Notes under the pieces: generated by a model
Database searches by the model: none
Told to the model about the DNA's origin: nothing
The model's input: only the letters and a program-made list of their open reading frames with translations
Shown here: piece by piece, positions 28,031 to 51,284 of the stretch
Position numbering within the stretch: the first letter of the stretch is position 1
Layout: the number at the start of each line of letters is the position of its first letter
Source: Planctomyces sp. SH-PL62
GTDB lineage: Bacteria > Planctomycetota > Planctomycetia > Planctomycetales > Planctomycetaceae
DNA length: 64,000 nt
Direction of reading: 5' to 3'
NCBI GenBank assembly: GCA_945893045.1
Contig: CAMDEA010000001.1
Span: 1-64,000 of the forward strand
Translations under genes and position numbers: made by a program

Positions 28031-28044
28031 ACGAACTCCACTCA

Positions 28045-28096
28045 GTAGCCGCGTTCGCCAGAACGCGGCCGGCCCGCACTCTGGCGAGTACGGCGT
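28045..28096. repeat. Degenerate REPIN-like element between tandem paralogs
   Basis: The left arm starts GTAGCCGCGTTCGCCAGAAC with an internal CGCGTT-cgccag-AACGCG hairpin. The right arm carries a matching CGCACT-ctggcg-AGTACG hairpin in inverted order. It lies in the 86-base gap between the two CRTAC1-like genes. Confidence 0.65.
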
Positions 28097-28116
28097 CTCC
28101 GAAGCGAGAAAGACTT

Positions 28117-31288: not shown

Positions 31289-33235
31289 TTATGGTTGAAG
31301 GGGCGAGGAACTCTTCACAGCTCGCCGCCGTGGATCGACTCGGCGACGGTATTCGATCAAATCATTCAATCGCGGCTTCAGGGTTTCAACCTCAGTCAGC
31401 TCGCCCGTGTTGGTCAGCAGATAGATGAGCCGCTCGCAATAGCGTGGGTCGTCCGGAGCGAGTTCACACGCCCGTCTCACCGCCTGAATCGCGGCCTCCG
31501 TTTCGCCGCCGACGTCCAAGCACTCGCTGAGCATCAAGTAAGCTTCGGGAATCGGTCGCAGCTTCACCGTTCGTTCCAGCCAGGGCCGCGCTTCGGTCGG
31601 AAGACGCTGTTCGTAGTAACTCATTCCCAGAGTGAAGCAGGCGGACGCCCAAGCGGAAGGAGACGCTGCTTTGGCGTCAACAACGGCCTGGGCACTGTGC
31701 ATCATTTGCTCCCGATTCACACCCCAATGCAGCCGCGCGAGTGCGGCATCGACTTCGGAATCCTCCCCGCCTTCCTGGCTGAACAGCAGCAGCAGTTGCG
31801 CGGCTCGCTTCCGATATTCGGGAATGTGAGCGACCTGCTCCGTCGCCTCGGAGAACTGCAAGTAACCCAGCCCCAGGTTGCGGATCTCATCCAATTCGAC
31901 CGCCTCGGGGCTTCCCGGAATGAGCACCAATGCGTCCGCTTCCTTCTTCGATGTCGTCGCGGCCGGAGCCGGCTTGTGGATTCCGATCCGGTGATGAGTG
32001 AATGCGAAGTGCGGAATCTCGGTCGGACCGCGCGGCATGTGACACTGGATGCAATCGTCTGCGATTGTTGTCACGCGGCGATCGTCCGCGCTGGCCTTGC
32101 AGGACTGATCCGTGTGGCACTGCAAACATTTCTCGCGAAAGACCGCCGGCATCTCCGCAGGTGTCTGCTCCGCATGAGGGTCGTGGCAAGTCAGACAAGT
32201 CATCCGTTTATTCGCTTGATAGCAACGGCTGAGCCGCATCTGTTCGACGTGCCCCACGACGGTCATGTCGGCACTGGGCGACTGCGGCGCGTAGTGCGCG
32301 AGATAGTCCGACAACTTGCGGCCCGGTCGAAAGTCGAGCAGGCTGCGACCACGCCGCTCGACCGTCGCCGCGCTGTGTAAATGACATTGAGCACACACAT
32401 CCTCGCCGAGTTGGCGATCAAAGTGGACGGGATTGAAAATGGTCTCGTCCAGTTCGATATTGGTCCCTTGGCCCGCGATCACACCGTCCCACTTGCGAGC
32501 GTGTAACTCGCCCGGGCCATGACAGCGTTCGCAGTCAATCGCCAACGAAGGCAACGCGACCCGCTGCGGACTGCGATCGAGCGATTCCACACGCCCGGCA
32601 TGACAGACCAGGCAGCGCAACAGGACCGGGCGTTGGAATCCCAGATTGCCCCTGTCGTAACCGGGGGACAACTTCCATTCTTTCGGAGCGGAGTACCAAG
32701 TCGCCGGCGACACGAAGAGACAGCCGTCACGATCGACGAGATAACTTCGCGAAAAACTTCCGGACCCGATGACATATCGCACCGGCAGATCGCACAAGAT
32801 GAGCGGCGACCCCGCGGTGGTGCGGATGGATTCCTCTTGTCGCAGGCGACCATCTTGGCGGTAGATGCGATAGTGCCGCTGTGAAACGGGATCGGAGAAC
32901 TCGCCATCGGGCGGTTCAACTCCGAGATCAATCTCCGCCAGAGCACGCGAATGAGCGGTGTGGTGGTATGAGGATTCTTCCGCACGATGGCAGGCGGCAC
33001 AGCGCTCCGTGCCGATGTAGTCCACATCGGTCTGAGCATTCTTCACCGGCGCGGCCGCGATCGGTGGTAATTGCACCGCCGGCGGTTTCGCGGGCAGCGC
33101 AGGCGATGTCGGGGGCGTGGGCTGACCACAGCCCGACAGCCATGTCAACACAATGCAGAACCGAGCCACACAGGAATGCGCCAGCGAATGAACAAGTCCA
33201 GCGGGATGACGATTCAACCAAGGCGAATCAAACAT
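31289..33235 (-). CDS. Seven-haem c-type cytochrome lipoprotein with TPR tail
   Basis: A 648-residue protein from the ATG at 33235, chosen because it restores the N-terminus shared with paralog B (MFDSPWLNRHPAGL). A lipobox LSGC lies at residues 33-36. Seven CxxCH haem sites are visible: CAACH, CLVCH, CERCH, CAQCH, CLTCH, CLQCH and CIQCH. Extra His residues (SYHHTAHS, THHRIGIH) may be distal ligands. The last 200 residues are TPR-like. It is likely an envelope electron carrier related to cytochrome c554-type multihaem proteins; partners are not evident. The upstream in-frame extension to 33343 looks like remnant DNA rather than coding sequence. Confidence 0.88.
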   Translation of the reverse strand: MFDSPWLNRHPAGLVHSLAHSCVARFCIVLTWLSGCGQPTPPTSPALPAKPPAVQLPPIAAAPVKNAQTDVDYIGTERCAACHRAEESSYHHTAHSRALAEIDLGVEPPDGEFSDPVSQRHYRIYRQDGRLRQEESIRTTAGSPLILCDLPVRYVIGSGSFSRSYLVDRDGCLFVSPATWYSAPKEWKLSPGYDRGNLGFQRPVLLRCLVCHAGRVESLDRSPQRVALPSLAIDCERCHGPGELHARKWDGVIAGQGTNIELDETIFNPVHFDRQLGEDVCAQCHLHSAATVERRGRSLLDFRPGRKLSDYLAHYAPQSPSADMTVVGHVEQMRLSRCYQANKRMTCLTCHDPHAEQTPAEMPAVFREKCLQCHTDQSCKASADDRRVTTIADDCIQCHMPRGPTEIPHFAFTHHRIGIHKPAPAATTSKKEADALVLIPGSPEAVELDEIRNLGLGYLQFSEATEQVAHIPEYRKRAAQLLLLFSQEGGEDSEVDAALARLHWGVNREQMMHSAQAVVDAKAASPSAWASACFTLGMSYYEQRLPTEARPWLERTVKLRPIPEAYLMLSECLDVGGETEAAIQAVRRACELAPDDPRYCERLIYLLTNTGELTEVETLKPRLNDLIEYRRRVDPRRRAVKSSSPLQP

Positions 33236-33302
33236 AGGCATTCTCGAACCGTTGAGGAGTGGTCGAAAATCTGCGGCGAACTCTGCTGAGTGCCGGAAGC
33301 TT

Positions 33303-33329
33303 TTACGGATTCCGGCACCAGAAAACGAT
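33303..33329 (-). pseudogene. Remnant of a CRTAC1-like gene 3' end
   Basis: Read leftward, these bases encode IVFWCRNP-stop. Both tandem CRTAC1-like genes end IVFLHRNP-stop or IVFLNRNP-stop, and the bases around the stop (CTTTTACGGATTCCG on the plus strand) are the same in all three places. Further upstream the similarity is lost. This looks like the cut tail of a further paralog lying immediately before the cytochrome gene. Confidence 0.6.
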
Positions 33330-33446
33330 TCACCACGACGCACACGTTGAATCCATCGCTGAAATTGCAGGAAACCTGACCCGCTTGCAAATCATCACGT
33401 TGAGTCAGATACTTTTTCAGTGTGTCATCAATGTTGATTTCACTTC

Positions 33447-33520
33447 GCGCCCGTAGCTCAATTGGATAGAGCGTCGGACTTCGGATCCGAAGGTTGGGGG
33501 TTCGACTCCCTCCGGGCGTA
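33447..33520 (+). tRNA. tRNA-Arg (anticodon TCG)
   Basis: A 74-base cloverleaf: acceptor GCGCCCG pairs with CGGGCGT (one G-T), D stem GCTC/GAGC, anticodon stem TCGGA/TCCGA with loop CTTCGGA (anticodon TCG), and T stem GGGGG/CCCTC with loop TTCGACT. CCA is not encoded. Its 3' 43 bases form the attachment site of the element downstream. Confidence 0.95.
33478..33520. repeat. attL core (3' end of tRNA-Arg)
   Basis: These 43 bases, from the anticodon stem to the last base of the tRNA, recur exactly at 51242-51284 in the same orientation. Flanks differ immediately outside, as expected for site-specific integration. Confidence 0.92.
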
Positions 33521-33546
33521 ATGACTTACGACGAGCCGAATTGATC

Positions 33547-33568
33547 TGTCAGAGAAGATGTCAGAGAA
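33547..33568 (+). promoter_or_regulatory. Left arm-type direct repeats, candidate integrase sites
   Basis: Two copies of TGTCAGAGAA (33547-33556 and 33559-33568), 12 bases apart, lie just inside attL. Two more copies in the same orientation lie just inside attR (51092-51112). Paired short repeats at both ends of a tyrosine-integrase element are typical of arm-binding sites. Confidence 0.6.
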
Positions 33569-33589
33569 TTCGGCTCGGTGATGGCAAGT

Positions 33590-33630
33590 AAAAAACTCCT
33601 GTCAGTGGTCTTGGCGGATACTGACAGGAG
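33590..33630 (-). terminator. Intrinsic terminator reading leftward out of the element
   Basis: An 11-bp perfect stem (CTCCTGTCAGT / ACTGACAGGAG, 33596-33630) is followed on the minus strand by six T residues. It would stop transcripts leaving the element toward the tRNA gene. Confidence 0.7.
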
Positions 33631-33689
33631 TTCGAGAACCTTCCTTGGCTCTCTTGGTGTGTTTCACAACCAGCAAGGGAGGTTCAATC

Positions 33690-34691
33690 GTGCCGCACTA
33701 TCCGAAACCGTTTTTCCGGGAAAACCGTTGTCTCTGGTATGTCCAAGTTGACGGCAAACAGATCAATTTGGGGGCTGATCGCGAGACTGCGTTTCGTCAG
33801 TACCATCAACTGATGCAGCAGCCCGCGCAGACGGCGACAAGCACCGCAGCCGTTTCTGTCGCCTCGATCGTGGATGCGTTTCTGGATTGGAGTCAGAAGC
33901 ACCAAGCCGAGCGGACATATTCCCGCTACGGCGAGTACTGCCAATCGTTCGTCAATCTGTTTCCCGATCTGCTGGTGTCGGACATCAAACCATTCCACAT
34001 TCAGGAATGGGTCGATTCGCAGTCGGGGTGGGGGAACACGACGAAGCGAAATGCGATCGTCGCGATGAAGCGAGCATTCAATTGGGCCGACAAGCAAGGC
34101 CACATTTCCGTGAACCCCATTCGTCACGCGGAAAAGCCGACTCCCGACAAACGCGAAGACTTCATCACGGCAGCCGATCACAAGAAAGTTCTTGCACAAG
34201 TTCGCGATCAAGAATTTCGTGATCTGTTGGTGCTTGCGTGGGAGACGGGTGCTCGGCCGCGTGAGCTGTTTCGTCTCGAAGCCCGGCATGTGGATTTGGA
34301 GAATGGCCGCTGGGTCTTTCCGAAGAGCGAGTCGAAAGGGAAACGGCAGTCGCGGACGATCTACTTGTCCGAAGTCGCTCTGGAAATCACGCAGCGACTG
34401 ATGGCCAAGCCGATTCAAGGACCGCTTCTCCGAAACGCGAACGGGCAGCCGTGGGGCACGGAGTCGGTCAACTGTCGCTTCTGTCGTCTCAAAAAATGGA
34501 TTGGCAAAAAAGTCTGTCTGTATCTGTGGCGGCATGGGTACGCTCATCGGATGTTGAGCCAGCAAGTCGATTCGTTGGTCGTGGCAACGCTCATGGGGCA
34601 TGTCGATACCACGATGCTTTCGACCGTTTACGGTCACTTGATGAAAAATCAAAAGTTGCTGCGTGAGGCGGTTCGAAAATCGGTGAGCTGA
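33690..34691 (+). CDS. Tyrosine recombinase / integrase
   Basis: A 333-residue tyrosine integrase that should recombine the 43-bp att sites flanking the element. The GTG start at 33690 is chosen because GGGAGG lies 7 bases upstream; an in-frame start at 33645 has no such site. An N-terminal SAM-like core-binding domain covers about residues 55-140. Catalytic residues are visible: Arg in ETGARPRELFRLE, the box II YLWRHGYAHRM (RH conserved, the usual first His replaced by Tyr), then GHVDTTMLSTVYGHL with the nucleophile Tyr. It sits immediately inside attL, with an excisionase gene convergent to it. Confidence 0.93.
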   Translation: MPHYPKPFFRENRCLWYVQVDGKQINLGADRETAFRQYHQLMQQPAQTATSTAAVSVASIVDAFLDWSQKHQAERTYSRYGEYCQSFVNLFPDLLVSDIKPFHIQEWVDSQSGWGNTTKRNAIVAMKRAFNWADKQGHISVNPIRHAEKPTPDKREDFITAADHKKVLAQVRDQEFRDLLVLAWETGARPRELFRLEARHVDLENGRWVFPKSESKGKRQSRTIYLSEVALEITQRLMAKPIQGPLLRNANGQPWGTESVNCRFCRLKKWIGKKVCLYLWRHGYAHRMLSQQVDSLVVATLMGHVDTTMLSTVYGHLMKNQKLLREAVRKSVS

Positions 34692-34706
34692 TCTGCTGAG
34701 GAAGAG

Positions 34707-34741
34707 GGGAGTCTGTCTGAAACGGATTCGGACAGACTCCC
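34707..34741. terminator. Hairpin between convergent integrase and excisionase genes
   Basis: GGGAGTCTGTC and GACAGACTCCC form an 11-bp perfect stem around a 13-base loop, followed on the plus strand by GTTTCTGTC. It lies 15 bases after the integrase stop and 8 bases from the excisionase stop, so it may serve both genes. Confidence 0.7.
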
Positions 34742-34748
34742 GTTTCTG

Positions 34749-34976
34749 TCAGACCGGCAACTTGATGTGCTTGAGCGTCGATTGTGCGGGACGCCTTCTC
34801 GCGGTCACTCGTTCCCGTGGCCCGCGTTTCGTGGATTCAAGATAGTCCTGAATCTGCTCTTCGCTCACGCGGACGCCGGGACAACGATGATGGCCGAGCT
34901 TGCCGGTTTCGATTAGTTGATACGCCGTCGATACCGAGCAATTAAGGAGCTTTGCGACCTGGCTGACTTTCAGCAT
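34749..34976 (-). CDS. Excisionase-like HTH protein
   Basis: A 75-residue protein with a MerR/excisionase-type winged helix: KVSQVAKLLNCSVSTAYQLIETGKLGHHRCPG, then VSEEQIQDYLES, the classic layout of HTH_17 excisionases. AAGGAGA precedes the ATG. It is convergent with the integrase and lies inside the left end of the element, so directing excision is the likely job. The basic tail (ERVTARRRPAQ) may add DNA contacts. It overlaps the upstream 88-codon gene by 35 bases. Confidence 0.88.
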   Translation of the reverse strand: MLKVSQVAKLLNCSVSTAYQLIETGKLGHHRCPGVRVSEEQIQDYLESTKRGPRERVTARRRPAQSTLKHIKLPV

Positions 34977-35208
34977 GGCTCGTCTCCTTCTCTTTCGAGT
35001 CGATTTGTTCGGATCGGGATTTCATCGCTTCCCAAAAATGTTTGCGGCAAAGGAAACCAGTCAGGCCATCTTTGAAGATGGCTTGCACTCCCTCGCCGTG
35101 GGCGAGGCACCACACACATTTGGGGGCGCAAGCTGAATAGAAAATAGGCGGGGCATTGCAATACTCAGGCTGGAGCGTCAAGTTCCTCGGCACCGCCGGG
35201 TTGATCAT
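34942..35208 (-). CDS. Small putative zinc-binding protein
   Basis: An 88-residue frame whose 3' end overlaps the excisionase start by 35 bases. Cys and His residues are spaced as in a zinc knuckle: CVWCLAHGEGVQ followed by FLCRKHFWEAM. That pattern, and the position in the same leftward group as the excisionase, favour a real gene. No ribosome site stands out before the ATG at 35208. It was not recognised as a known family; an element-control role is only a guess. Confidence 0.5.
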   Translation of the reverse strand: MINPAVPRNLTLQPEYCNAPPIFYSACAPKCVWCLAHGEGVQAIFKDGLTGFLCRKHFWEAMKSRSEQIDSKEKETSHAESQPGRKAP

Positions 35209-35356
35209 GCAAACGTCTTTGCAAAAATCAGAAGTCTCATCGGCGTCTTCGGCTTGGCTTTTCTGTGGCTTGTCATGTCAAGACAATGCGTTAAGGGCAG
35301 AGTTGGGCTCCTTCGCCTAACGAATTAACGGCCTAGTAGTCGATTCTTGAGGATGC

Positions 35357-36175
35357 GTGGAAAATGGAGAATCTGGGGCAGGATTTTGGGATGACATCCT
35401 CATGCGAACCACGGTAGTTGACGAACGGTGGAGTCAGGCATCGGGGATTCCGTTTCGTCGATTGCAGGTTGGACCAGAACAAGAATTGGTGAATTGGTTC
35501 CTTCAAGAGTTACCATTTTCACCACCCGCAGGATGCCGCACGACGGTCTTTCGCGAGCCACGACTGGAATCTGGTTTTCCAGATGTGGTCGTCGTCATTT
35601 GGCGTCCGGAGACAACTCTGCGATGGGCGGATCAGCGGCGAGAGTTAACGACCCGCGATATCCGGGTGTTACATCACTTGGCATTACGAGGCCCTTCGAC
35701 TCTGGAAGAATTGAGCGAACCGTTTGCGGGCGGGCTCGTGCGATGTCTCGAACGACTTGAGTCAGCGGCTACGATCCGTCGAATTGGAAAAAGATATTCG
35801 GCCCGTTCTTTGTCGCGAACATTTGCAGTCCAGCGTATCATAGCTTTTGAAGCGAAGGTCCGTGGTTGGAATGGAGTGCTGGCTCAAGCGTCTCTAAACA
35901 CTTGGTTCGCATCTCACTCTTTCGTATTGATCCCAGACAGTCCGCGAGTTGAAGATTTTGCGCAGGCAGCACTTCTGAGAGGTGTCGGTGTTTGGACGCA
36001 AGATCATGGCTGTGTGAGCCAACCGGCAGAAGACATTGGACGGTTGCCTCTTTCCTATGCTTCGTGGTTGTTCAACGAGTGGGTCTGGAGAATTCATCGT
36101 CTCGATTCGGATTCGGATTCATGTCTCTCGACGTCAATTGGCTACGAACAAAATTCCCTGTGCTGCAAAACCTGA
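35357..36175 (+). CDS. PD-(D/E)XK nuclease-like protein with inserted winged helix
   Basis: A 272-residue protein, first gene of a three-gene rightward group. A GTG at 35357 follows GAGG; an ATG at 35402 is the alternative start. Nuclease-like signature: Glu in FREPRLESG (67/71), P-D at 75-76 (SGFPDVVVVIW), then E-A-K at 165-167 (IIAFEAKVRGW), with Gln177 downstream. Between the PD and ExK strands (about 98-150) lies a winged-helix-like insert (TTRDIRVLHHLALRGPSTLEELSEPF). No known family name was recognised. Its last 55 bases overlap the kinase start, implying coupled translation. Role in defence or DNA processing is inferred from fold and location only. Confidence 0.65.
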   Translation: MENGESGAGFWDDILMRTTVVDERWSQASGIPFRRLQVGPEQELVNWFLQELPFSPPAGCRTTVFREPRLESGFPDVVVVIWRPETTLRWADQRRELTTRDIRVLHHLALRGPSTLEELSEPFAGGLVRCLERLESAATIRRIGKRYSARSLSRTFAVQRIIAFEAKVRGWNGVLAQASLNTWFASHSFVLIPDSPRVEDFAQAALLRGVGVWTQDHGCVSQPAEDIGRLPLSYASWLFNEWVWRIHRLDSDSDSCLSTSIGYEQNSLCCKT

Positions 36176-36972
36176 TTCCGATTGGCAGTGGCGGGCAGAA
36201 GTGGGTCTTCTCCGCTGACCATCCGAGTGACGGAGCCGTTGTCCTAAAATTGATTCAGCCACGAATGAGCATTGACCTCGTCACACGAGAAATCAGCGCC
36301 GTCCGTCAGGTTGCTTCTCCGAGAGTTCCTGAAATTCTCGATGCTGGAGAAATCGACACGCCTCTTGGAAAGTGCTTTTGGTTTCGTGAACGGCGTATTG
36401 AGGGAAGTCCTGTTTCGGACCTCCTCCGACTTGGTCCCTTGGATATCGTGAGGGTACTTCGGCTCGGTCTTCATACGCTCGAAGCCTTGGCAAAATCAGA
36501 GCAAGAGCGGATTGTCCACCGAGACGTCAAACCAGCCAACATCATCTGTGACAAGCAAGACAGTTTCTGGCTTCTCGACTTCGGCTTGGCGAGGCACTTG
36601 CAGCTTACGTCATTGACTCCAACGGCGGACGCTTTTGGGAAATGCACACCGGGCTACGCTCCACCGGAACAAATTCACAATGTCAAACGCGATATTGATT
36701 CGCGAGCCGATCTATTCGCCCTCGGCGTGACCTTGTTCGAATGTGCGACCGGGCGAAACCCATTTCACGACGGAGCGAGGGACGTGCTTGAGGTTCTTCG
36801 TCGTGTCGAAACACGACCGCTCCCCCTTCTCAAATTGTCGTTCGGATCGGCCAACGAATTTCGAGACCTCATTGCCTGCATGACCCAAAAACGACGAGAC
36901 CATCGCCCGCGAACAGCCCAGGCAGCGTTGACATGGATACAAGAGATTTGTGTAAGAGAAAACGTCAGATAG
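36121..36972 (+). CDS. Serine/threonine protein kinase
   Basis: A 283-residue Hanks-type kinase domain with no membrane span or extra domain. Visible motifs: glycine loop IGSGGQKWVF (21-30), ATP Lys43 in VVLKLIQ, catalytic HRDVKPAN (133-140) and DFGLAR (153-158), followed by GYAPPEQ and DLFALGVTLFECATGRNPF. All key residues are present, so it should be active. It overlaps the nuclease-like gene by 55 bases and ends 9 bases before the next gene. Free-standing kinases inside mobile elements are known from several phage-defence systems; whether that applies here is untested. Confidence 0.93.
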   Translation: MSLDVNWLRTKFPVLQNLIPIGSGGQKWVFSADHPSDGAVVLKLIQPRMSIDLVTREISAVRQVASPRVPEILDAGEIDTPLGKCFWFRERRIEGSPVSDLLRLGPLDIVRVLRLGLHTLEALAKSEQERIVHRDVKPANIICDKQDSFWLLDFGLARHLQLTSLTPTADAFGKCTPGYAPPEQIHNVKRDIDSRADLFALGVTLFECATGRNPFHDGARDVLEVLRRVETRPLPLLKLSFGSANEFRDLIACMTQKRRDHRPRTAQAALTWIQEICVRENVR

Positions 36973-36981
36973 GCGGCTTTT

Positions 36982-38190
36982 ATGGAAATGTATCTTCAAT
37001 TCGGTTTTGGAATGATGGACCACTGCCGTCAACTTCTTGGGCAGTGGAGTGGCGGGACTGTTGCATTGAGTCCCCGTGACTTAACCGACGATCAACTAAT
37101 TCGTCTTTCCGGGGACGTCCGACGCATTCAGAACGGCTATGTACTTCTCGACCCGCAATTCTATCTGCCGCATTCGGATCACGAACGACTGTGTTCACAC
37201 TCCTACTGGCCGGACAACTACCAAACCTCGGTGTTCTGGCAAGGGCCGCCACTGAGCCAGTTGCTGACAACCTTATTGGCGAAGAACCAGCAGCTTGGTT
37301 GTCGAGCGTTCATTTTGCCCGGTTTGCTGGCTACGCAAGTGGACGATGATTGGCTCGCCGTTCAGACAGCAATTGTGAATGAAGCGGAAAGCCTCCCGTC
37401 CCCGTTGCCAAGAATCGCGACCATTGCCCTCTCGGCGGATGCCACGCGAGATTCTGACCAGATTGGCAATCTGGTCGAGGCGGCTGAAAACTGGCCGGTT
37501 GATGGGTTCTATGTGGTCGCCGAACATCCGGACGGGAATTACCTTGTTGATGACCCCAATTGGCTTGCCAATTTCTTAGATCTAGCAGGTGGTCTTCGGC
37601 TGCTAGATAGGGAAGTAATCCTCGGATATTGCAACCATCAGATTCTTTGCGCCGCCTGCGTAAAAGTGAATGCAGTTTGTTCCGGAACATGGATGAATGT
37701 TCGATCATTTTTTCCGGAAAAATTTCAGGCAACTACTGATGAAGAAATCAAGCAACGTAGCCGGTGGTACTACTGTCCGCAGGCATTGTCTGAATACAAA
37801 ATCCCGTTCCTCGACGTGGCAAAGCGGCAAGGTGTTCTCGACGAAATGCGACCACCGCAAGAACTTGATGGTGGTTATACGTCGGTATTGTTTTCAGGAG
37901 CTCAGCCGTCAACAGTGGATTTCTCTGAACAAGCTGCTTTCCGTCACTACTTACACGCACTTCGTGGGCAGGTAGGGACAGCAGTGCTCGGTACATTCGA
38001 TGATACTATGGCCCATCATGAGCAGGCTTTGACAGCGGCTGAGACGTTGTTGGACACTCTACATGCGGCTGGCGTTCTTGGTCAGAAGCGAGATTTCGGC
38101 GACATTATTGACGTGAATCGGGCCGCCCTCTCAATTCTGCGAACAACTCGCGGGCCAATGCTCCGGCACCGATGGGCAACGCTCCAATAG
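36982..38190 (+). CDS. Conserved-looking protein of unknown function, third gene of kinase module
   Basis: A 402-residue soluble protein starting 9 bases after the kinase stop. I do not recognise the family. Regular alternation of strands and helices, such as RIATIALSADATRDSDQ, DGFYVVAEHPDGNYLV and REVILGYCNHQILCAACVKVNA, suggests an alpha/beta barrel. HADHERLCSHSYWPDNY-type residues near 65-80 (HSDHERLCSHSYW), CNHQILCAAC and the invariant-looking SGTWMNVRSFFPEKF are candidate active-site or metal-binding segments. A tRNA-guanine-transglycosylase-like barrel is one possibility to test. It ends 18 bases before the convergent methylase-like gene. Confidence 0.6.
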   Translation: MEMYLQFGFGMMDHCRQLLGQWSGGTVALSPRDLTDDQLIRLSGDVRRIQNGYVLLDPQFYLPHSDHERLCSHSYWPDNYQTSVFWQGPPLSQLLTTLLAKNQQLGCRAFILPGLLATQVDDDWLAVQTAIVNEAESLPSPLPRIATIALSADATRDSDQIGNLVEAAENWPVDGFYVVAEHPDGNYLVDDPNWLANFLDLAGGLRLLDREVILGYCNHQILCAACVKVNAVCSGTWMNVRSFFPEKFQATTDEEIKQRSRWYYCPQALSEYKIPFLDVAKRQGVLDEMRPPQELDGGYTSVLFSGAQPSTVDFSEQAAFRHYLHALRGQVGTAVLGTFDDTMAHHEQALTAAETLLDTLHAAGVLGQKRDFGDIIDVNRAALSILRTTRGPMLRHRWATLQ

Positions 38191-38208
38191 CCTGGAATCA
38201 AGTGATTC

Positions 38209-39024
38209 TTAAAAGAGTCGAAGCTGATTCGTGCGACGCATTGGTTCGTCGTCTGCCTCACCGTTTGGATCGCACGGTTCATCCGATGAAGCTAGAGCGG
38301 CTGGTAACTCAACCGGTGATGTTGGCTCAGTGACGATCTTCTGCACTGGCTCCGGGCAGTTGTCGAGCGGCACTTCGGAGATGACGCCCGTCAGGTCAAA
38401 GCCTGTGCGATAGACGAGCCGCCGCTCATCGGTGAGCGAGTTGCCCTGGATGACGTAGCCATAGAGGTTTCTCAAGGCGAGGTTGATCGCACACATTCGG
38501 ACGCATCGCAAATCGACGTCTTGCCCAACGAACAGCCAATGCGGGTGCATTTCCGCGACGGCCAACAGCATCCGGCCGCAGCCGCATGCAGGATCGCAAA
38601 CACTGTTTTTCTCGTGCTTCGCCTCTTCGGGAACATCGCCGACAGTCATGGCTGCCATCATGCGGGCGATCGGTTCCGGCGTGAGAAACTGGCCGTTCTC
38701 GCCGTAGGTGATCGCACCTTGATACAGGTCGCCCAAGATGTCTTTCATCTCCCCGCGAGTCTCCTCGGCCTCCATCGCTGCGACGGATTTCGCGAAGAGT
38801 TCCGCGATGGAATCGCACCCGCGTCGTCCCGGCTTCCCTTGTGAGTGCTTCTTCACGACCGCCATGTACTGCTCTTCCATCCGCTGGCCGGAGAGCGAGC
38901 ACACGGTCATGTGCAAGAAATCCTCGAATGCCTGGCCACGACTGACGCCACTACGTCGTGCCGCCTCGTCGAGGGTTTTGAGAAGGTCGGCCGATTCGGG
39001 GTAAAAGAATTGTTCCTTCGCCAT
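38209..39024 (-). CDS. N6-adenine methylase-like protein without visible NPPY motif
   Basis: A 271-residue protein from the ATG at 39024. Residues about 130-160 give the type I HsdM-like entry GENGQFLTPEPIARMMA, followed by the SAM-binding motif DPACGCGRMLLAVAEMHP and GQDVDLRCVRMCAINLAL. These are typical of N6-adenine methylases. The catalytic NPP(Y/F) expected after the NSLTDERR strand is absent; the matching strand reads GVISEVPLDN. It may be inactive, use a different tetrapeptide, or be a regulator. Its tail is polar and ends NQLRLF. Convergent with the kinase module. Confidence 0.75.
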   Translation of the reverse strand: MAKEQFFYPESADLLKTLDEAARRSGVSRGQAFEDFLHMTVCSLSGQRMEEQYMAVVKKHSQGKPGRRGCDSIAELFAKSVAAMEAEETRGEMKDILGDLYQGAITYGENGQFLTPEPIARMMAAMTVGDVPEEAKHEKNSVCDPACGCGRMLLAVAEMHPHWLFVGQDVDLRCVRMCAINLALRNLYGYVIQGNSLTDERRLVYRTGFDLTGVISEVPLDNCPEPVQKIVTEPTSPVELPAALASSDEPCDPNGEADDEPMRRTNQLRLF

Positions 39025-39330
39025 GTGGCGGATTGGGATGAAATCAGAAGAGCTGTCCTGGCTTGGATGGCTTCTCGGTCGGTATCGGTACACGTTGCTC
39101 GGAAGCGGCGGCGGTCAGCCGTTCAAGATGCTGCAAGCGTGCTGGTTCAGGGGCCGGTGTGCGTGCGGATTTCGTCATATAAAGGAGAGGGGCAGACTGC
39201 CGCACGGCAAGCGTTCCGTCAACATGACAGCAGCAATTGGCTGCAAAGGCGATTGAGACGGTTCTACCGCATTCGTAATTCCAATTAGAACTCAGGACTT
39301 ACATGACGACAACAATTGCGAAAAACAAAC

Positions 39331-40047
39331 CTAGCCCGCTCTTGGCATCCGAAGCTCGGCCTCATCAAGACATCTGAGTAATTGCCGAATCCGCTCTACC
39401 TCAGAATGAAATAGTCGACAGAGAGGGTCCACAATTCTCCCTGCCATCATGAAGTCTTTTGCTAAAGCATCCACAGCAACAGCGTATGCCTTCTTCGTCA
39501 CTGACGCTCCGTTCTCAACACAAGACGTCAGCAGTCGATTGCAGTTAAACGTGTGAGTGTCTTCCTGTATGTCATCAATATCATCAGCTATTTCAGACAA
39601 CACATCAAATAACTGCCATCTTGCTAAAACTACTTTAGATGGCATTATCCCGGCGTGCCGCACTACCAGCGTCCGCTGAATCTCGACATCACACTTCTTT
39701 AAGTGATAGTGTCGATCTATGGGAATGGTAAGTGCCGATCGTCCGGTGCGCAGCCCTAATTCAACCTCCTGATATCCAACAATCGGTCGGCAAATCGCAT
39801 TTGCTTCTTCACGCGAAATCCCAAACTCTTCTGCAAGTGCCGAAAAGATCGGCTCCCAAACACAAGTCAACTCAGCCGAAGAAATTAACCAACGCGACTC
39901 GCCAAAAAGGTCTAAACGGTAAACAGCCTCTTGCAATCGCGCAAGCCGTCGTTCAAGTTGTGAGAATGCAGCGAGACCGCAGACCGCCTCTGCGAAAAGC
40001 GGGATTTGGCGTATCTCAAATAGAAATTGCGTCTTCTCTTTGAGCAC
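39331..40047 (-). CDS. Unknown helical protein, possible class I isoprenoid-synthase fold
   Basis: A 238-residue, largely helical soluble protein. The only suggestive motif is an acidic cluster ADDIDDIQEDTHTFNCN near residue 155, resembling the D-D-x-x-(D)-x-E-D metal-binding helix of class I isoprenoid synthases and placed after a helix carrying RWQLFDVLSEI. A paired aspartate-rich region earlier in the chain was not found, so activity is doubtful. It is the last of a leftward group, 12 bases after a small membrane gene and downstream of a sodium:solute symporter. The region is AT-richer than the chromosome. Confidence 0.4.
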   Translation of the reverse strand: MLKEKTQFLFEIRQIPLFAEAVCGLAAFSQLERRLARLQEAVYRLDLFGESRWLISSAELTCVWEPIFSALAEEFGISREEANAICRPIVGYQEVELGLRTGRSALTIPIDRHYHLKKCDVEIQRTLVVRHAGIMPSKVVLARWQLFDVLSEIADDIDDIQEDTHTFNCNRLLTSCVENGASVTKKAYAVAVDALAKDFMMAGRIVDPLCRLFHSEVERIRQLLRCLDEAELRMPRAG

Positions 40048-40059
40048 AATTAACTCCGA

Positions 40060-40563
40060 TTATGATTCCGGTCCAGTCTCTGGAAAACGAGGGCGAATTA
40101 GATCAATGATCGCCTTTCCCCCCTCGAATTTGAATGCAGTCGCGATCGTGAACGTCACGCAGACAACACACAAAATGACCGCCACTGCGTGGAAGACTGA
40201 GGCAGCTTTTGCGAACTGAGCGTCAATCTGTTGGATTGAGTGCAGAAACTCAAGACTCCCGCCAACGACAATGCACATAAGGGCCGAAGACGACCAGCCC
40301 ACAATCAGTGACCGCAAATGTGACATCGACACAACGCGGCTCTCGGTTGTTTCAAGTACAAGCAGGTACAAATGCAAACTCGAAAATATCTTATCACAAA
40401 CATCTCCACTCTTTAGATCATGGGCCATGCGCAAGAACTGTCTCTTAACATCGGCCTCCTGTCGTGCCGCCCAGTAGTTTATGAATGCCTGCGTTGTAAA
40501 CAGGCAACCAAACATTGTCCCAATCCACACTGTTAGTGATACCTGACCGGATGCGATGCCCAT
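40060..40563 (-). CDS. Small membrane protein of transporter group
   Basis: A 167-residue protein with three probable membrane spans: SLTVWIGTMFGCLFTTQAFI at the N-terminus, SLIVGWSSSALMCIVVGGSL in the middle, and VFHAVAVILCVVCVTFTIA near the end. A charged central region of about 50 residues lies between the first two. No family was recognised. It starts 4 bases after the symporter stop and ends 12 bases before the isoprenoid-like gene, so the three are an operon. It may be an accessory subunit of the symporter. Confidence 0.6.
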   Translation of the reverse strand: MGIASGQVSLTVWIGTMFGCLFTTQAFINYWAARQEADVKRQFLRMAHDLKSGDVCDKIFSSLHLYLLVLETTESRVVSMSHLRSLIVGWSSSALMCIVVGGSLEFLHSIQQIDAQFAKAASVFHAVAVILCVVCVTFTIATAFKFEGGKAIIDLIRPRFPETGPES

Positions 40564-40567
40564 TTGA

Positions 40568-42019
40568 TTACCTAGCGATATAGACGCTTCTCAACAATCC
40601 GATGCACAGTACGACCAGGACGGTGAAAAACGAGAGCAATGGTGCTGACTCAGCGAGCAATCTGATGTTCCAAACCCATGAGGATACAACAGCGGCCAAT
40701 CCGGTAACAAAAGCAAGCACCATTGCCAAACTAGCGGTGGAACCAAGAGCCTTTGCCTTTTCAGGCCAGAAAAATTGCAAACAAAGTGGTAGGAAGAAAA
40801 CGACTTGGCCAGAGAATACGGCGATTGCAATGTCGCTTATCGGTCTTTTGAGCCAGATTGCCAGAATTGCCACGAATGCCGAAAGGAATCCGAAAAAGAC
40901 AGTATACAATTGACCGGTAACGACGATCCGCCGCTCATCAGTGGCGCTTCTCGTGGTGTGATCTCGTGGGACTTGTAATAAATCGAAGACGACCGTCAGG
41001 GCAGAGCAGTTTAGTAATTCGTCTGCTGTTGAAAGCATTGCCCCAATAAATCCCGCTATGATTATTCCAGTTAGTGGCGCAGGTAGTTGCTGTAATGAGA
41101 GGAACACCCGTAATGGCTGATCGCTGTGCGCGATCTCAATGTTATGCCGACGTAACCAGAGTCCGACAAAAATCGGTGCCGAATAACAAATCGCCAACAG
41201 GGCTCCGCCGCTGATCGTCCAGCTCGCAATTGATTTCTCCTTCTTGTGCCATGCTGCACAACGCTGCCAACTGTCGAGCACGCAGAAATGAAATGGTATG
41301 AACAACAGTGCCATACCTAAAGCATACAGCACTGATTCTGTGATATCTGGTAATGGAGGCGGGCTGCCGACTAGCTCTGCCGGAACTACTGACAAACCAT
41401 CTCTCGGATATGCGAGATAGCCGATGATGATCGCTGCGGCGAGGGCAAAAATGTCAAGAAAGAAGTCCGATATTGCAACACCGCGAAAACCGCCTATGTA
41501 TGTGAATGCGGCGCAGCACGCCGCCAAAACAAGTCCGAGAGTTACGTCATATCCACTTGGCAGTCCAAGCCAGTGGAAAACGAGCATTGCGCCATAAAAT
41601 TCAAGTCCAACAGTGCCTGTGAAGCCGATGATCGTCCAACATGAGGCCCATTTTTGAAGCTGAGGTGAGGCGAACCCTTCGGCGAGAGCTTGATGAAGCA
41701 TTTGCCCCTTTGCCACATAGGGCTGAATGTGGTTATACAATATCGAAAATAGACATGATCCTAGAAACCAAAAGACCGGTACAACGAATACACAGGCACC
41801 TCGGTAATATGCCTCGTGTGCAAGTAAAAGAAAAATAGTCGTGAATGTTAGATTCGCTCCAAAGTAAGTGGATACGACGCTTGTGGTGCTGAGTGTTCCT
41901 TGAGCAATAAAATACCCACGCCATCCTTTGTTTTGAGAACGACCAAAAATCGCGAGGATAGCGGCTATGATCGGAATAGCCGTTAAGACAAGCCAGTCGG
42001 CGAGTGTCATGGAAATCAT
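40568..42019 (-). CDS. Sodium:solute symporter (SSS family)
   Basis: A 483-residue polytopic protein with about 13 membrane spans. The ATG at 42019 follows a GGAG site. SSS/SLC5 family landmarks: STYFGANLTFTTIFLL in the first helices, YTIGGFRGVAISDFFLD-like FTYIGGFRGVAISDFF, a DSWQRCAAW loop, and the conserved sodium-site helix FIGAMLSTADELLNCSA. It would import an organic solute with sodium across the cytoplasmic membrane; the substrate is not evident. First gene of a leftward trio inside the mobile element, which is unusual cargo for such an element. Confidence 0.88.
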   Translation of the reverse strand: MISMTLADWLVLTAIPIIAAILAIFGRSQNKGWRGYFIAQGTLSTTSVVSTYFGANLTFTTIFLLLAHEAYYRGACVFVVPVFWFLGSCLFSILYNHIQPYVAKGQMLHQALAEGFASPQLQKWASCWTIIGFTGTVGLEFYGAMLVFHWLGLPSGYDVTLGLVLAACCAAFTYIGGFRGVAISDFFLDIFALAAAIIIGYLAYPRDGLSVVPAELVGSPPPLPDITESVLYALGMALLFIPFHFCVLDSWQRCAAWHKKEKSIASWTISGGALLAICYSAPIFVGLWLRRHNIEIAHSDQPLRVFLSLQQLPAPLTGIIIAGFIGAMLSTADELLNCSALTVVFDLLQVPRDHTTRSATDERRIVVTGQLYTVFFGFLSAFVAILAIWLKRPISDIAIAVFSGQVVFFLPLCLQFFWPEKAKALGSTASLAMVLAFVTGLAAVVSSWVWNIRLLAESAPLLSFFTVLVVLCIGLLRSVYIAR

Positions 42020-42151
42020 GGGTGTGCTCCGCATTGGCAACTTTTGTAGCGTAAAGGCTGAATGCCGTCTATGTTACGTTGGTTTCTGTGCCCACCAACT
42101 GACAGTGGAGACATGCGTTGATTCTTTCAGTCAAAATGTACTCGAAGGTGT

Positions 42152-44410
42152 TCATCGGAGTCGTCCGGCGATTGCAGAGTGAATTTGCTCGAACGCTTGA
42201 CCGTGTTCACGGCGGGAACGCTCACTCACGATCGCGAGGCGGTCGTCGGTGACGGCAGGCGGCGAGAAGGATTGCATGGAGAACGGATTGCTCGGCATTC
42301 CGTCAATCAGCAGCCGAGCGTAGGCGGTGTACCGAGGAAGGTTCGTCAAGTCTTGCGACGTCAGTTGTCCGGGATGTTTGCTCAATTGCTCGGCGAGCGG
42401 TCCCGCGTCGTCGGCTCCGACTTGGAACGCGACAATGGAACCGACGTTGCCGAAGACGGCGTCACTGGTGGTCTCATCAAGTTGCTTCAAATACTGATGG
42501 GCGATGGTCAGGCTCAGGCGATACTTGCGGGCCTCGCTCAAGATGGATGCGAACGAACTGGTCGTGAAATTTTGAAACTCGTCAATGTAGAGATAGAAGT
42601 CGCGACGGTCTGCTTCGGGGATGTCGGCTCGCGTCATGGCCGCCTGTTGAATCGCGGTGACAAGGAATGCCCCCAGCAGTGTGGCGTTGTCTTCGCCGAC
42701 TCGGCCTTTGCTGAGATTCACGATCAGGACTTTGCCTTGGTCCATGATTTCGCGAAGGTTTAGTGATCGATCGGGCTGGCTGACGATGGCTCGCATGGTG
42801 CGATTGGTCAGGAACGGACGAATTTTGTTTTGGATCGCCGCTACAGCCTCGGTGCGATAGCGGTCGTCCCAACTCGCGAACTCGTGCATCCAGAAACTGC
42901 GGACCACGTCGTCGCGAATCTTTGGAACGATGAAGTCTCGGAAGTTCCGCTCGGCGAGCAGTCGCATCAATTCCAACATCGTGCCGCCTTGCTCGACGAT
43001 CGCGAACACGGCGTTGCGGAGTGTGTCCTCCAACCTCGGTCCCCACGAATCGTGCAGCTTCTTGAACGCGGACACGACACCCGACGTGACTTGGTCGATC
43101 AGTGCTGGGTCGCGACACGCGAGCGGATTAAACGACACCGCGAACTCACGATCGCCAGCGTCAAACAGGATCACGTCGTTCGTGCGATGTGTCGGCATCA
43201 ACCGCAGAATCGAAATGGCAAGGTCGCCGTGCGGATCAACGAGACAGACACCGCGACCGGCTTCAATGTCGGCATAGATTTGATTCTGAAGCAGCGTTGT
43301 CTTGCCCATACCCGTCTTGCCGACGATGTAAAGGTGTCGGCGACGATCTTCCTGCGATATGCCGATGATGCGACGGTCATCGCGAAATCGAATCTGGCCG
43401 ACGATGACCGCCCCGTTCTCTCTTCCTGAATAGAACTTGGCCGGAGATTCGAGTTCTGAGAACTCGGTTGTCTGCATCTGCTCGGCGAGAACGGTGGCCG
43501 TGGGTGGGTGCCACAACGTCGCAAGTTCCTCATGCGACAACAAAAAGCCGTGACCACGAAGCGGCTTCAAGGAAGCCTTCCGGATCGGGCCAAGGCGGAA
43601 TGTCGCGAGCCGTGATTTTGTGAAGGCTCCAAACGCTCCGGCCATCTGGCGGATTCGATCGCTCGCCTCACGATGACGCTCGGCGGGAGCCGTGACGATC
43701 AGGCGAATATGCGACTCGAACAAATGCCCGCCCACTTTTTCACTCGCGGCTTGCAGGTCATCTTCGCGGTCGTGCAACCGACTCGTCGAGGTTTCGAGAG
43801 TTGTTCGTGACGGCTCTGCGGACCTCCAAGCAATCACGCCAAGCAGCCACGCCAGCAGCCAGCCATGCGGTCGCGTGATGTGGCGAGCGTAATAGCGAGC
43901 GAGTCTGTGGTGGTGATGGAAGAATTCGCGGTCGAGCCGTTTCACAGCATGGACGGCTTGGTGACAGCGTCGCGGCGTCGCCGGAGAGATGATGATCTCG
44001 ATGCGGCACTGCACCTGCTCGTCGGGCTTGATAGCTCGCAAGATGCCGTTGATGGGGTCGGCGAAGTTCCGGTTCAGCATGTCCTCGAATTGTGCGTGCC
44101 GAAGAATCGGGAAGAGTTCGGGAATCAATTCCAGTTCGGCGGCCCACGTCTTCCATTCTGTGGGGCATGGCTCATTCTGCTCGACGGTGGTGATCGAACA
44201 GTTCGGATAGTTCGCGGTGATCGGGCCGGTGACGAATTCATCCATGCTCTGAAGCGACCGCACGAAAAGAGCAACTCGCCCCTCGTGCGTGCCATAGACC
44301 AATGATATCGACTGTCGCTCGTGATTCGCCTGATGAATCGCGGCGAGTGCCTTCTCCATGTACCTGGGGCCGCGTTCGTTGGTCGCCGGTGCGGAGATGA
44401 GTTTGAGCAC
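42152..44410 (-). CDS. VirD4/TraG-like DNA-translocating ATPase
   Basis: A 752-residue ATPase of the type IV coupling protein / HerA superfamily. The Walker A is VGKTGMGKTTLL near residue 375, followed by GVCLVDPHGDLA. A Walker B-like strand FYLYIDEFQNF lies near 610, and SLTIAHQYLKQLD close to it is the usual sensor-type segment. The long N-terminal half (HITRPHGWLLAWLLGVIAW) has at most one or two weak hydrophobic stretches, so membrane anchoring is unclear. It probably pumps or segregates element DNA. No relaxase or VirB genes are nearby. Confidence 0.88.
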   Translation of the reverse strand: MLKLISAPATNERGPRYMEKALAAIHQANHERQSISLVYGTHEGRVALFVRSLQSMDEFVTGPITANYPNCSITTVEQNEPCPTEWKTWAAELELIPELFPILRHAQFEDMLNRNFADPINGILRAIKPDEQVQCRIEIIISPATPRRCHQAVHAVKRLDREFFHHHHRLARYYARHITRPHGWLLAWLLGVIAWRSAEPSRTTLETSTSRLHDREDDLQAASEKVGGHLFESHIRLIVTAPAERHREASDRIRQMAGAFGAFTKSRLATFRLGPIRKASLKPLRGHGFLLSHEELATLWHPPTATVLAEQMQTTEFSELESPAKFYSGRENGAVIVGQIRFRDDRRIIGISQEDRRRHLYIVGKTGMGKTTLLQNQIYADIEAGRGVCLVDPHGDLAISILRLMPTHRTNDVILFDAGDREFAVSFNPLACRDPALIDQVTSGVVSAFKKLHDSWGPRLEDTLRNAVFAIVEQGGTMLELMRLLAERNFRDFIVPKIRDDVVRSFWMHEFASWDDRYRTEAVAAIQNKIRPFLTNRTMRAIVSQPDRSLNLREIMDQGKVLIVNLSKGRVGEDNATLLGAFLVTAIQQAAMTRADIPEADRRDFYLYIDEFQNFTTSSFASILSEARKYRLSLTIAHQYLKQLDETTSDAVFGNVGSIVAFQVGADDAGPLAEQLSKHPGQLTSQDLTNLPRYTAYARLLIDGMPSNPFSMQSFSPPAVTDDRLAIVSERSRREHGQAFEQIHSAIAGRLR

Positions 44411-44436
44411 GTCCGCAGCGTATCACGAGCGACCGT

Positions 44437-45063
44437 TCAGGGCTTGGGGCGATAATCGCGGGGGTCGATGCACGAGTCGTAGGTGGCTTTATTGATCGGA
44501 CACCAGTCCGTGTGATTGATGCCACGTCGGTTGCTCGCCGCCGGATCGTCCGGAAAGGCACTGGCGATCTTGATCCAACGATTCTGAAAGCTCGCGACCA
44601 GACGAGTCAGCGAGGCCAGTTCACTGAGGTCTTGGTCCTGACTAAAGATCAACGCCACATCGAATTCAAAGCGATGCGCCGAGTCGAGCGCATCGAGAGC
44701 CAGTCGCACGTCGATCCCCTTCTCCTCGCCACTGAGAAATGTGTGATTGCCAAATCCCGGTACGGCGATGGTCTTGTGGCGATACACGAGCGGACGGCTG
44801 TAAACCTCGATGCCGCGACGACCCATCATGGCGAGCTTGTTGGACCAAAACCCGTTCCAAAACGGGTTGTCGGATGCGCTGGGAACTCCCGTGTAGAATT
44901 TGACGCCGGTCAACGTCCAGCCGCGTGTGGCACAGACAACCTGAGCCAGCTTTTGAACATCGTAGTTCGGGAAGTTGTAACCGAAGGCATTGCGGGCATT
45001 GTGAAAGAGGTTCTGCCCGTCAATGAAGGCGATGGTTCGCTTTGGGGTCGGTTCGGCAGGCAT
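44437..45063 (-). CDS. NYN-domain (LabA/DUF88) putative RNase
   Basis: A 208-residue NYN domain, a PIN-like nuclease fold. The ATG at 45063 is preferred because the family begins just after it (RTIAFIDGQNLFHNARN); an in-frame start at 45189 is possible. Acidic active-site residues are visible: IDGQN, GIDVRLALDAL and FSQDQDLSELA. Such proteins process or degrade RNA. It lies between the VirD4-like and replication-relaxation genes, in the element's backbone and on the same strand, suggesting a control or maintenance role for the element. Confidence 0.85.
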   Translation of the reverse strand: MPAEPTPKRTIAFIDGQNLFHNARNAFGYNFPNYDVQKLAQVVCATRGWTLTGVKFYTGVPSASDNPFWNGFWSNKLAMMGRRGIEVYSRPLVYRHKTIAVPGFGNHTFLSGEEKGIDVRLALDALDSAHRFEFDVALIFSQDQDLSELASLTRLVASFQNRWIKIASAFPDDPAASNRRGINHTDWCPINKATYDSCIDPRDYRPKP

Positions 45064-45401
45064 CGGACTGTCCGAGAAAAAAATAACCCGACTGAGGCCT
45101 TGCGGCGGGTCAGCCGGGTAAGAAGTAGAGCTACTATCGGCGTCTGGCGTGCAAAAGTCAATCACTTCGGTGAGGTTTCGGAATTTCACCGGATCGAGCA
45201 GCCGTTGGAATTCTGGAAGACGTGGATTTCCCGATCACGAATTCCTTTCACAAAACCGCCTCAGTTGAGTGTGTGTGTCTCGCATGAGGCGGTTGCCGCC
45301 ACGTTTCAAGATCGGTCGCTTACTTCCTCATCCATTCGGAGAAGGGACGCGGCGTGATACCCGCGTCAAACGAACGTCGGAACGATGGTCGGGCCGTGAC
45401 G

Positions 45402-47563: not shown

Positions 47564-47747
47564 TGCGGCGGCAGTGCCGCCCTGTTGTGAGTCACCGCGT
47601 CCCGTCGTGGCTCCGCCACGAACACACCGGGCCGCGTCGTGAGTGGAGCTTCCGAGTTGATCGCTAGCACTCGTGACCGCCGATCGTCTCGTCGGCGAGT
47701 CGTGACGCTCCGCGTCGCTCACGCCGTCGGGCGTGTGTCGTGCGGGC

Positions 47748-48355: not shown

Positions 48356-48398
48356 ATCGACAGGAAGCAATTAGATCATTCCCCTGCTGAGCGTGACC

Positions 48399-51241: not shown

Positions 51242-51284
51242 ACTTCGGATCCGAAGGTTGGGGGTTCGACTCCCTCCGGGCGTA
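51242..51284. repeat. attR core
   Basis: Exact 43-bp copy of the 3' end of tRNA-Arg at 33478-33520. The sequence to its right includes a terminator hairpin that most likely belonged to the tRNA gene before insertion. Confidence 0.92.

What the first reader, a model, noticed from the sequence alone, without database searches (positions are those of the whole stretch)
35357..38190. Candidate undescribed three-gene nuclease / kinase / unknown module in a mobile element
Seen: three rightward genes with a 55-base overlap and a 9-base gap, inside a tRNA-Arg element. Gene 1 has P-D...E-x-K with an inserted winged-helix-like segment; gene 2 is a complete Hanks-type kinase; gene 3 is unrecognised, with CNHQILCAAC and SGTWMNVRSFF as candidate active-site segments. 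Known: kinases and PD-(D/E)XK nucleases both occur in phage-defence systems, and mobile elements often carry them. Inference: the three form one regulated defence or DNA-modification unit.
Basis: partly seen in the sequence, partly recalled or inferred. Interest (0 to 1): 0.78.

Follow-up and report, generated by a model that had tools for sequence, protein, structure and literature searches.

The report
Nuclease, kinase and TGT-fold defence module
Three neighbouring genes in a planctomycete mobile element (a nuclease, a protein kinase and a third protein shaped like a tRNA-base-swapping enzyme) turn out to be a unit that travels together between distant bacteria and archaea, often beside known virus-defence genes, and that matches no named defence system we could find.

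Summary
In detail: three rightward genes (35357-36175, 36121-36972, 36982-38190) in a 17.8-kb tRNA-Arg element with 43-bp att repeats. They are a real unit. In 23 loci found through gene 3 alone, across several bacterial phyla and two plasmids (one archaeal), the nuclease is adjacent in 22 and the kinase in 22; with three loci found through the nuclease, 25 and 23 of 26. At least 12 of the 26 lie within about 10 kb of type I restriction-modification, Eco57I-type methylase or BREX-like genes, once inside a BREX-like operon. The nuclease keeps E...GxxD...ExK in 17 of 17. Window gene 3 has no Pfam, NCBIfam or PADLOC family. A relative folds confidently (pLDDT 92) as a TIM barrel whose best PDB matches are tRNA-guanine transglycosylases; it has an invariant Gly where TGT seems to have its nucleophile. 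A sister family keeps TGT's CxCxxC motif and sits beside a related nuclease, with a SocA/Panacea-like gene and no kinase. I infer an anti-invader module: nuclease plus TGT-fold targeting protein, gated by the kinase. The activity is untested. New variant of a known kind; interest 0.72.

The parts
35357..36175 (+). Gene 1 (nuc): PD-(D/E)XK-type nuclease, 272 aa; E41, GFPD (73-76) and EAK (165-167) motifs; winged-helix-like insert around residues 97-150
   Evidence: weak MarR-type matches of the alignment (0.04)
36121..36972 (+). Gene 2 (kin): single-domain Hanks-type Ser/Thr kinase, 283 aa, HRDVKPAN and DFG present
36982..38190 (+). Gene 3 (g3): TGT-fold TIM-barrel protein, 402 aa; D57 (after strand 3) and G235 (after strand 8) invariant
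   Evidence: own model; homologue model and Foldseek
33447..33520 (+). tRNA-Arg(tcg), integration site of the element
33478..33520 (+). left att repeat (3' part of the tRNA gene), 43 bp
51242..51284 (+). right att repeat, perfect copy, 43 bp
33645..34691 (+). tyrosine-recombinase-type integrase ORF (by inspection of the translation, no family search)
38209..39093 (-). neighbouring ORF with a partial N-6 DNA methylase match, convergent to the module; may or may not belong to it
   Evidence: PF02384 1.2e-12

Best explanation
A horizontally mobile three-gene anti-invader module. Shown by sequence: the three genes are a conserved unit and often sit in restriction/BREX loci. Inferred: the nuclease and the TGT-fold protein form the effector pair. 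The TGT-fold protein binds nucleic acid through its barrel, reading or removing a base, and so places the nuclease on DNA (less likely RNA). The kinase switches the pair on or off by phosphorylation when infection, or failure of the neighbouring restriction system, is sensed, making it a second-line or abortive effector. The kinase is an exchangeable regulator, because a sister family has a related nuclease and TGT-fold protein with a SocA/Panacea-like gene and no kinase.
For: Co-occurrence: in 23 loci found through g3 alone, nuc 22 and kin 22; in all 26, nuc 25 and kin 23. About 0.29 kinases would be expected by chance within 2 kb of 10 such loci against 9 seen. Defence context: at least 12 of 26; for PF02384 alone, within 10 kb of g3 in 3 of 10 genomes against 0.26 expected (Poisson 0.002; 2 of 9 without the window's own genome, 0.025), within 12 kb in 4 of 10 against 0.31 (12 kb was chosen after seeing the hits). 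In L010 the trio lies between a DNA methylase and a SNF2 helicase, with PglZ and a DUF6079 (BrxC-type) protein. Catalytic residues: nuclease 17 of 17, kinase HRDxKxxN 22 of 22 full-length. Gene 3 fold. Sister family: matches g3 over its length (hhalign probability 98.4, E 1e-14 for the single comparison); nuclease adjacent in 4 of 5 loci that were not found through the nuclease, and kinase in 0 of 10.
Against: No experiment. In 14 of 26 loci I recognised no restriction system (the window has only a lone methylase-like ORF); several are short contigs, and their neighbours were not all searched. Profile comparison of g3 with bacterial TGT (0.3%) or phage DpdA-like TGT (0.4%) finds nothing, so the TGT link rests on fold and on the sister family. 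The TGT matches have TM about 0.47, rmsd about 7 A, and other barrels follow closely in E-value. The window protein's own model (pLDDT 73) ranked other barrels above TGT. One locus (L016) has no kinase. The nuclease fold was not modelled, and the nuclease profile was built from 17 of the neighbouring genes that it then labels.
Confidence: 0.55

Rival explanations
1. tRNA-directed abortive infection: gene 3 uses its TGT fold to dock on tRNA anticodon loops and the nuclease cleaves the tRNA (or gene 3 removes the base) once the kinase signals that the linked restriction system was blocked, as PrrC does beside a type I system.
For: TGT fold; placement directly after hsdM-hsdS in several loci; a SocA/Panacea-like, antitoxin-type gene beside the sister pair (by reading in 8 of 10 loci), which fits a toxic effector. 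The PrrC analogy is recalled, not tested.
Against: PD-(D/E)XK enzymes mostly cut DNA (general knowledge); no tRNA-specific feature was tested; no link to tRNA genes except the integration site.
Confidence: 0.2
2. DNA-modification system: gene 3 is an active transglycosylase that inserts a modified guanine into DNA, and the nuclease cuts unmodified DNA (Dpd-like).
For: TGT fold; TGT homologues act in DNA modification in Dpd systems and are proposed to in BREX-related capture systems (PMC12839542, passages read).
Against: By strand order the TGT nucleophile position is an invariant Gly; the window subgroup lacks the zinc motif; I noticed no 7-deazaguanine synthesis genes in the neighbourhoods that I read, but ran no search for them.
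Confidence: 0.12
3. The kinase is the effector (phosphorylating host translation or phage proteins) and nuclease plus gene 3 form the sensor of invader DNA.
For: Single-gene kinase defence (PD-T4-6) is the best PADLOC match of gene 2, 5.5e-42.
Against: The sister family keeps nuclease plus TGT-fold protein without a kinase in 10 of 10 loci examined; the PADLOC match is a general kinase-domain match.
Confidence: 0.13

Closest known systems
tRNA-guanine transglycosylase / DpdA superfamily (gene 3)
   Same: TIM barrel with a similar C-terminal part; best PDB matches of the g3 homologue are TGTs (8 of the 29 matches at E<=0.001, ranks 1-5, 11, 17, 27; TM 0.46-0.49 by query length); sister family keeps CxCxxC and a downstream His
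   Different: no Pfam TGT match; nucleophile Asp position is Gly; zinc motif absent in the window subgroup; no significant profile match to TGT or DpdA
PglW of type 2 BREX (NERD nuclease plus pseudokinase plus kinase)
   Same: a PD-(D/E)XK-clan nuclease joined to a Ser/Thr kinase in a methylation-linked defence setting (PMC12839542, passages)
   Different: three separate small genes and a third TGT-fold partner; no PglZ or BrxC recognised in the window; kinase matches the PglW model only at 55 bits (cut-off 990)
BREX-related capture (BRC) and Dpd systems
   Same: TGT homologue within defence loci (PMC12839542, passages)
   Different: those have PglZ, DUF6079, STAND NTPase, HerA (BRC) or DpdB/DpdC (Dpd); none recognised in the window, and their TGT is described as a modification enzyme
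Type I restriction-modification with accessory genes (PrrC-like idea, recalled)
   Same: module directly follows hsdM-hsdS in several loci
   Different: no hsd genes recognised in the window's element apart from the lone methylase-like ORF; the three proteins show no match to PrrC models in the libraries searched
PD-T4-6 and MADS kinases
   Same: Hanks-type kinase domain
   Different: PD-T4-6 is a single gene (recalled); MAD6 match is 94.8 bits against a cut-off of 460; genes 1 and 3 match no MADS model in PADLOC

Membership tests
tRNA-guanine transglycosylase family | match to the family profile (PF01702) | tested here: not met
   window gene 3 and 7 relatives: no TGT among Pfam matches up to E=1
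tRNA-guanine transglycosylase family | TGT-type barrel with C-terminal subdomain | tested here: met
   homologue model pLDDT 92.4, top five PDB matches are TGT over about 400 alignment columns, TM about 0.47, rmsd about 7 A; the window protein's own weaker model ranked TGT-related QTRT2 only 28th
tRNA-guanine transglycosylase family | zinc site CxCxxC...H | tested here: not met
   not seen in the 18 kinase-linked g3 sequences aligned (by reading); CxCxxC present in 8 of 10 sister-family proteins (L076 is cut by its contig, L114 lacks it)
tRNA-guanine transglycosylase family | nucleophile Asp after strand 8 | tested here: not met
   G235 in 18 of 18, and the same column Gly in 21 of 21 of A7, at the end of predicted strand 8; correspondence by strand order, TGT residues recalled
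tRNA-guanine transglycosylase family | Asp after strand 3 | tested here: inconclusive
   D57 invariant 18 of 18, 20 of 20 with a residue there in A7; equivalence to the TGT residue is by strand order only
PD-(D/E)XK nuclease (gene 1) | conserved D...(D/E)xK catalytic residues | tested here: met
   E41, G73, D76, E165, K167, A178 invariant in 17 of 17
PD-(D/E)XK nuclease (gene 1) | nuclease core fold | not tested
Hanks-type kinase (gene 2) | kinase domain with HRDxKxxN and DFG-type motif | tested here: met
BREX | PglZ plus BrxC in the locus | tested here: inconclusive
   met in locus L010 (PF08665, DUF6079); in the window's element none was recognised by reading, no PglZ or BrxC profile was run there
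Dpd / BRC | DpdB, DpdC or HerA, STAND partners | not tested
   none recognised by eye among ORFs of the element; no profile search for them
Known defence systems in PADLOC-DB 2.0.0 | genes 1 and 3 match a model | tested here: not met
   no match for the window's genes 1 and 3 up to E=1; of 10 g3, sister and nuclease relatives 9 have none up to 0.01 and one sister nuclease matches PDC-S41 weakly (6.5e-4)

The most novel reading that the evidence does not exclude
A transglycosylase fold that lost its nucleophile has been turned into a base-reading or base-removing targeting subunit for a nuclease, gated by an interchangeable regulator (Hanks kinase in one family, SocA/Panacea-like antitoxin in the other): a new class of regulated, base-directed restriction or suicide system that acts as a second line behind type I, Eco57I-type and BREX systems.
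Probability: 0.3. Interest if true: 0.87.

Novelty: new variant of a known kind. Interest (0 to 1): 0.72.

Why it matters
Kinases and nucleases recur in phage defence, but what the kinase does is often unclear. Here related nuclease/TGT-fold pairs are found with two different regulators, so the roles of effector and switch can be separated experimentally. It would also extend the TGT superfamily, known for modifying tRNA and DNA, into what looks like a recognition or base-removal role in restriction. The window's genes 1 and 3 have no family in the Pfam, NCBIfam and PADLOC copies searched, so annotation by those libraries would miss them.

Tried and rejected
Single-protein search of genome contigs with window gene 3 found no relative and alignment A1 was too divergent to search; a tighter subgroup (A3) worked. 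A pattern scan of viral contigs with A3 and a tblastn of one g3 homologue (L009) against phage records found none. The PPR/alpha-solenoid hits of the g3 profile in PDB have no stretch that passes on its own and were rejected as noise. The zinc-finger hit (0.21) is taken as chance. A direct g3 to TGT profile match was tested and failed; the zinc-type family against phage DpdA-like TGT gave 37% (E 3.5e-4) over the cysteine region only, with kinase and nuclease profiles at about 0.1%. The weak g3 hit in G099 is, by reading, an ATPase-like protein and was dropped; the one in G090 proved to be a sister-family member. Loci L035, L037 and L039 were left out of counts as copies of L017, L015 and L016. 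L098-L100 and five of the ten sister loci (L101, L102, L103, L033, L076) came from the nuclease search, so their nuclease neighbour is there by selection. Of the weaker nuclease hits, the rest have no g3-like neighbour that I recognised. Literature searches listed no paper that I recognised as describing this trio; only passages of PMC12839542 were read, other papers only as listings. Subscription papers and bioRxiv are not covered.
Full report
What is in the window. Three rightward ORFs, 35357-36175, 36121-36972 (from the likely ATG) and 36982-38190, overlap by 55 bases and are separated by 9 bases, as reported. They lie in a mobile element: the tRNA-Arg gene at 33447-33520 is followed by an integrase-type ORF, and a 43-bp perfect repeat of the tRNA's 3' part recurs at 51242-51284, bounding about 17.8 kb. 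The element also has a helix-turn-helix ORF, a VirD4-like ORF, a NYN-like ORF and replication-type ORFs, named by reading their translations, and a methylase-like ORF convergent with the trio (PF02384 1.2e-12).

Families. Gene 2 is a single kinase domain (Pkinase 3.5e-26). PADLOC's best match, PD-T4-6 at 5.5e-42, and NCBIfam's PASTA kinase, 120.7 bits against a cut-off of 450, are general kinase-domain matches. Genes 1 and 3 have no Pfam, PADLOC or NCBIfam family; the only listed match is a zinc finger at 0.21 for gene 3, taken as chance.

The unit is conserved. A protein search of 392 genomes of the phylum found gene 3 in 9, and a profile search in 12, of which one later proved a chance hit and one a sister-family member. 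A relative 51% identical over its length in G168 has the same three genes in the same order. A pattern scan of the genome-contig collection gave 14 loci, three of them copies of loci already held, whose record titles name Planctomycetota, Syntrophaceae, Desulfobacterales, Proteobacteria, Myxococcota, Opitutaceae, Verrucomicrobiales and Chitinispirillaceae. Plasmids of Natribaculum breve and Polaromonas naphthalenivorans carry the trio too. In a table of 26 loci the nuclease is beside g3 in 25 and the kinase in 23. Three of the 26 (L098-L100) were found through the nuclease; in the other 23 the figures are 22 and 22. The exceptions: L048, where the contig ends 84 bases after g3, lacks the nuclease; L016 has a broken 5' end of g3 and no kinase; L098 holds a 72-residue g3 remnant beside the nuclease and no kinase; in L100 the g3 ORF is fused to a kinase-like segment (1.9e-4). 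Orders: nuc-kin-g3 on one strand in 7 (window, L010, L011, L014, L031, L061, L099), kin-g3-nuc on one strand in 2 (L012, L013), kin-g3 with a convergent nuclease in 13; the other four are the exceptions. The nuclease profile was built from 17 of these neighbours; loci outside it (L013, L036, L043, L061) still score 2e-24 to 9e-66. Kinases are common in this phylum (453 matches in 10 genomes), but about 0.29 would be expected within 2 kb of 10 loci against 9 observed.

Defence context. Twelve of the 26 loci (L010, L014, L017, L031, L032, L036, L038, L041-L044, L048) lie within about 10 kb of HsdM/HsdS/HsdR, Eco57I-type methylase or BREX-like genes (L017 and L043 by BLAST cluster only; L036 by a SNF2/PLD helicase and an HsdS-cluster protein without a Pfam match). 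Only 20 neighbouring proteins were run against Pfam for this (one of them in the window), so 12 is a lower bound; in the other 14 I recognised no restriction system, several being short contigs, and the window has only the lone methylase-like ORF. In L010 the trio sits between a DNA methylase and a SNF2 helicase on one strand with PglZ and DUF6079, which PMC12839542 equates with BrxC. As a control, PF02384 has 70 matches in 10 genomes. Within 10 kb of g3, 3 of 10 genomes have one against 0.26 expected (Poisson 0.002), or 2 of 9 without the window's genome (0.025). Within 12 kb, a limit set after seeing the hits, it is 4 of 10 against 0.31 (3e-4).

Gene 1. E41, G73, D76, E165, K167 and A178 are invariant in 17 of 17 relatives, Q177 in 16. 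The insert, present in 5 of 17, resembles a MarR-type winged helix only weakly (0.04).

Gene 3. The window protein modelled from 8 sequences gave pLDDT 73, and Foldseek ranked pyruvate kinase and other barrels first, with the TGT-related QTRT2 at rank 28. A homologue (L009) modelled from 21 sequences gave pLDDT 92.4 and pTM 0.92; its top five PDB matches are tRNA-guanine transglycosylases, 8 of 29 matches at E<=0.001 are TGT, with TM-scores of 0.46-0.49 by query length and rmsd near 7 A over about 400 columns; other barrels such as PEP-binding enzyme I follow at similar E-values with lower TM. In the viral library two proteins named as TGT rank 10 and 25. Invariant residues of 18 sequences are M1, Q6, G8, S30, D57, Y61, P113, L205, G235 and F243; in the 21 rows of A7 the Gly holds in 21 and the Asp in all 20 that reach it. 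By strand order D57 follows strand 3, where TGT has a catalytic Asp, and G235 follows strand 8, where TGT has its nucleophile (TGT residues recalled). So the canonical exchange reaction looks unlikely; base reading or removal is inferred.

A sister family. Weaker nuclease hits led to a related protein beside a related nuclease. Four of these proteins share an invariant CxCxxC and a later His, TGT's zinc pattern; CxCxxC is in 8 of 10 members, L076 being cut by its contig and L114 lacking it. A profile of 8 of them matches g3 over its length (probability 98.4, E 1e-14 for that comparison), while kinase and nuclease controls, and bacterial TGT as well, stay under 1%. Against phage DpdA-like TGTs they reach 37% over the cysteine region; DpdA-like against bacterial TGT reaches 96% in the same test. 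In 10 such loci the nuclease is adjacent in 9 (E 5e-17 to 2e-4) and the kinase in none; five of the ten were found through the nuclease, and among the other five (L113-L117) it is adjacent in 4, L117 starting at a contig end. By reading the ORFs, 8 of the 10 have a SocA-like gene with a GITRL-type segment, not seen in L033 or L117; Pfam SocA_Panacea is weak and under its cut-off (0.006 and 0.019) in the two tested, and the Haloarcula plasmid record names it so. SIR2-type or Abi_2 genes flank two of them.

Interpretation. The constant part is nuclease plus TGT-fold protein; the kinase seems exchangeable with an antitoxin-like regulator. The simplest reading is a potentially toxic nucleic-acid-attacking pair kept under control until infection or failure of the linked restriction system. 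Which nucleic acid is attacked, and whether gene 3 removes a base or only reads it, is open. Published relatives in concept are PglW, where nuclease and kinases are fused, and Dpd/BRC systems, where TGT homologues modify, or are proposed to modify, DNA (PMC12839542, passages); the passages read describe no such trio. Literature searches listed under Tried and rejected found no description of it, within the open-access library only.

Noticed in passing
window 33478-51284: Integrated 17.8-kb element at tRNA-Arg with 43-bp att repeats, a VirD4-like ORF (42152-44410), NYN-like ORF (44437-45189) and replication-type ORFs (45402-51051), the ORFs named by eye.
   Followed up: partly
window 38209-39093 (-): Lone ORF with partial N6_Mtase match (1.2e-12) convergent with gene 3; might be a partner or an element gene.
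   Followed up: partly
window 25082-31068: Two tandem ORFs of 982 and 983 aa, clearly similar to each other by eye, followed by an ORF (31289-33343) with several CxxCH motifs.
   Followed up: no
L103 5332-10802: Sister-family genes flanked by Abi_2 (2e-28), a SIR2-like ORF (weak) and a specificity-subunit-like ORF (by eye): looks like a defence island.
   Followed up: partly
L100 2051-3496 (-): Kinase-like segment fused to a g3-type protein with a CxCxxC motif that matches both the kinase-linked and the sister profile: a possible evolutionary intermediate.
   Followed up: partly
L012 2605-3618: Patatin-like ORF (by eye, DGGGIK) right after the trio.
   Followed up: no
L032 7649-8928 and L016 5574-7208: Gene 3 is broken in these two genomes (split over two frames, and 5' part out of frame); could be decay or assembly error.
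   Followed up: no
L061 13378-20604: Polaromonas plasmid trio is followed by an ORF of unknown function with, by eye, a nuclease-like segment, and by a UvrD-type helicase (as annotated).
   Followed up: no
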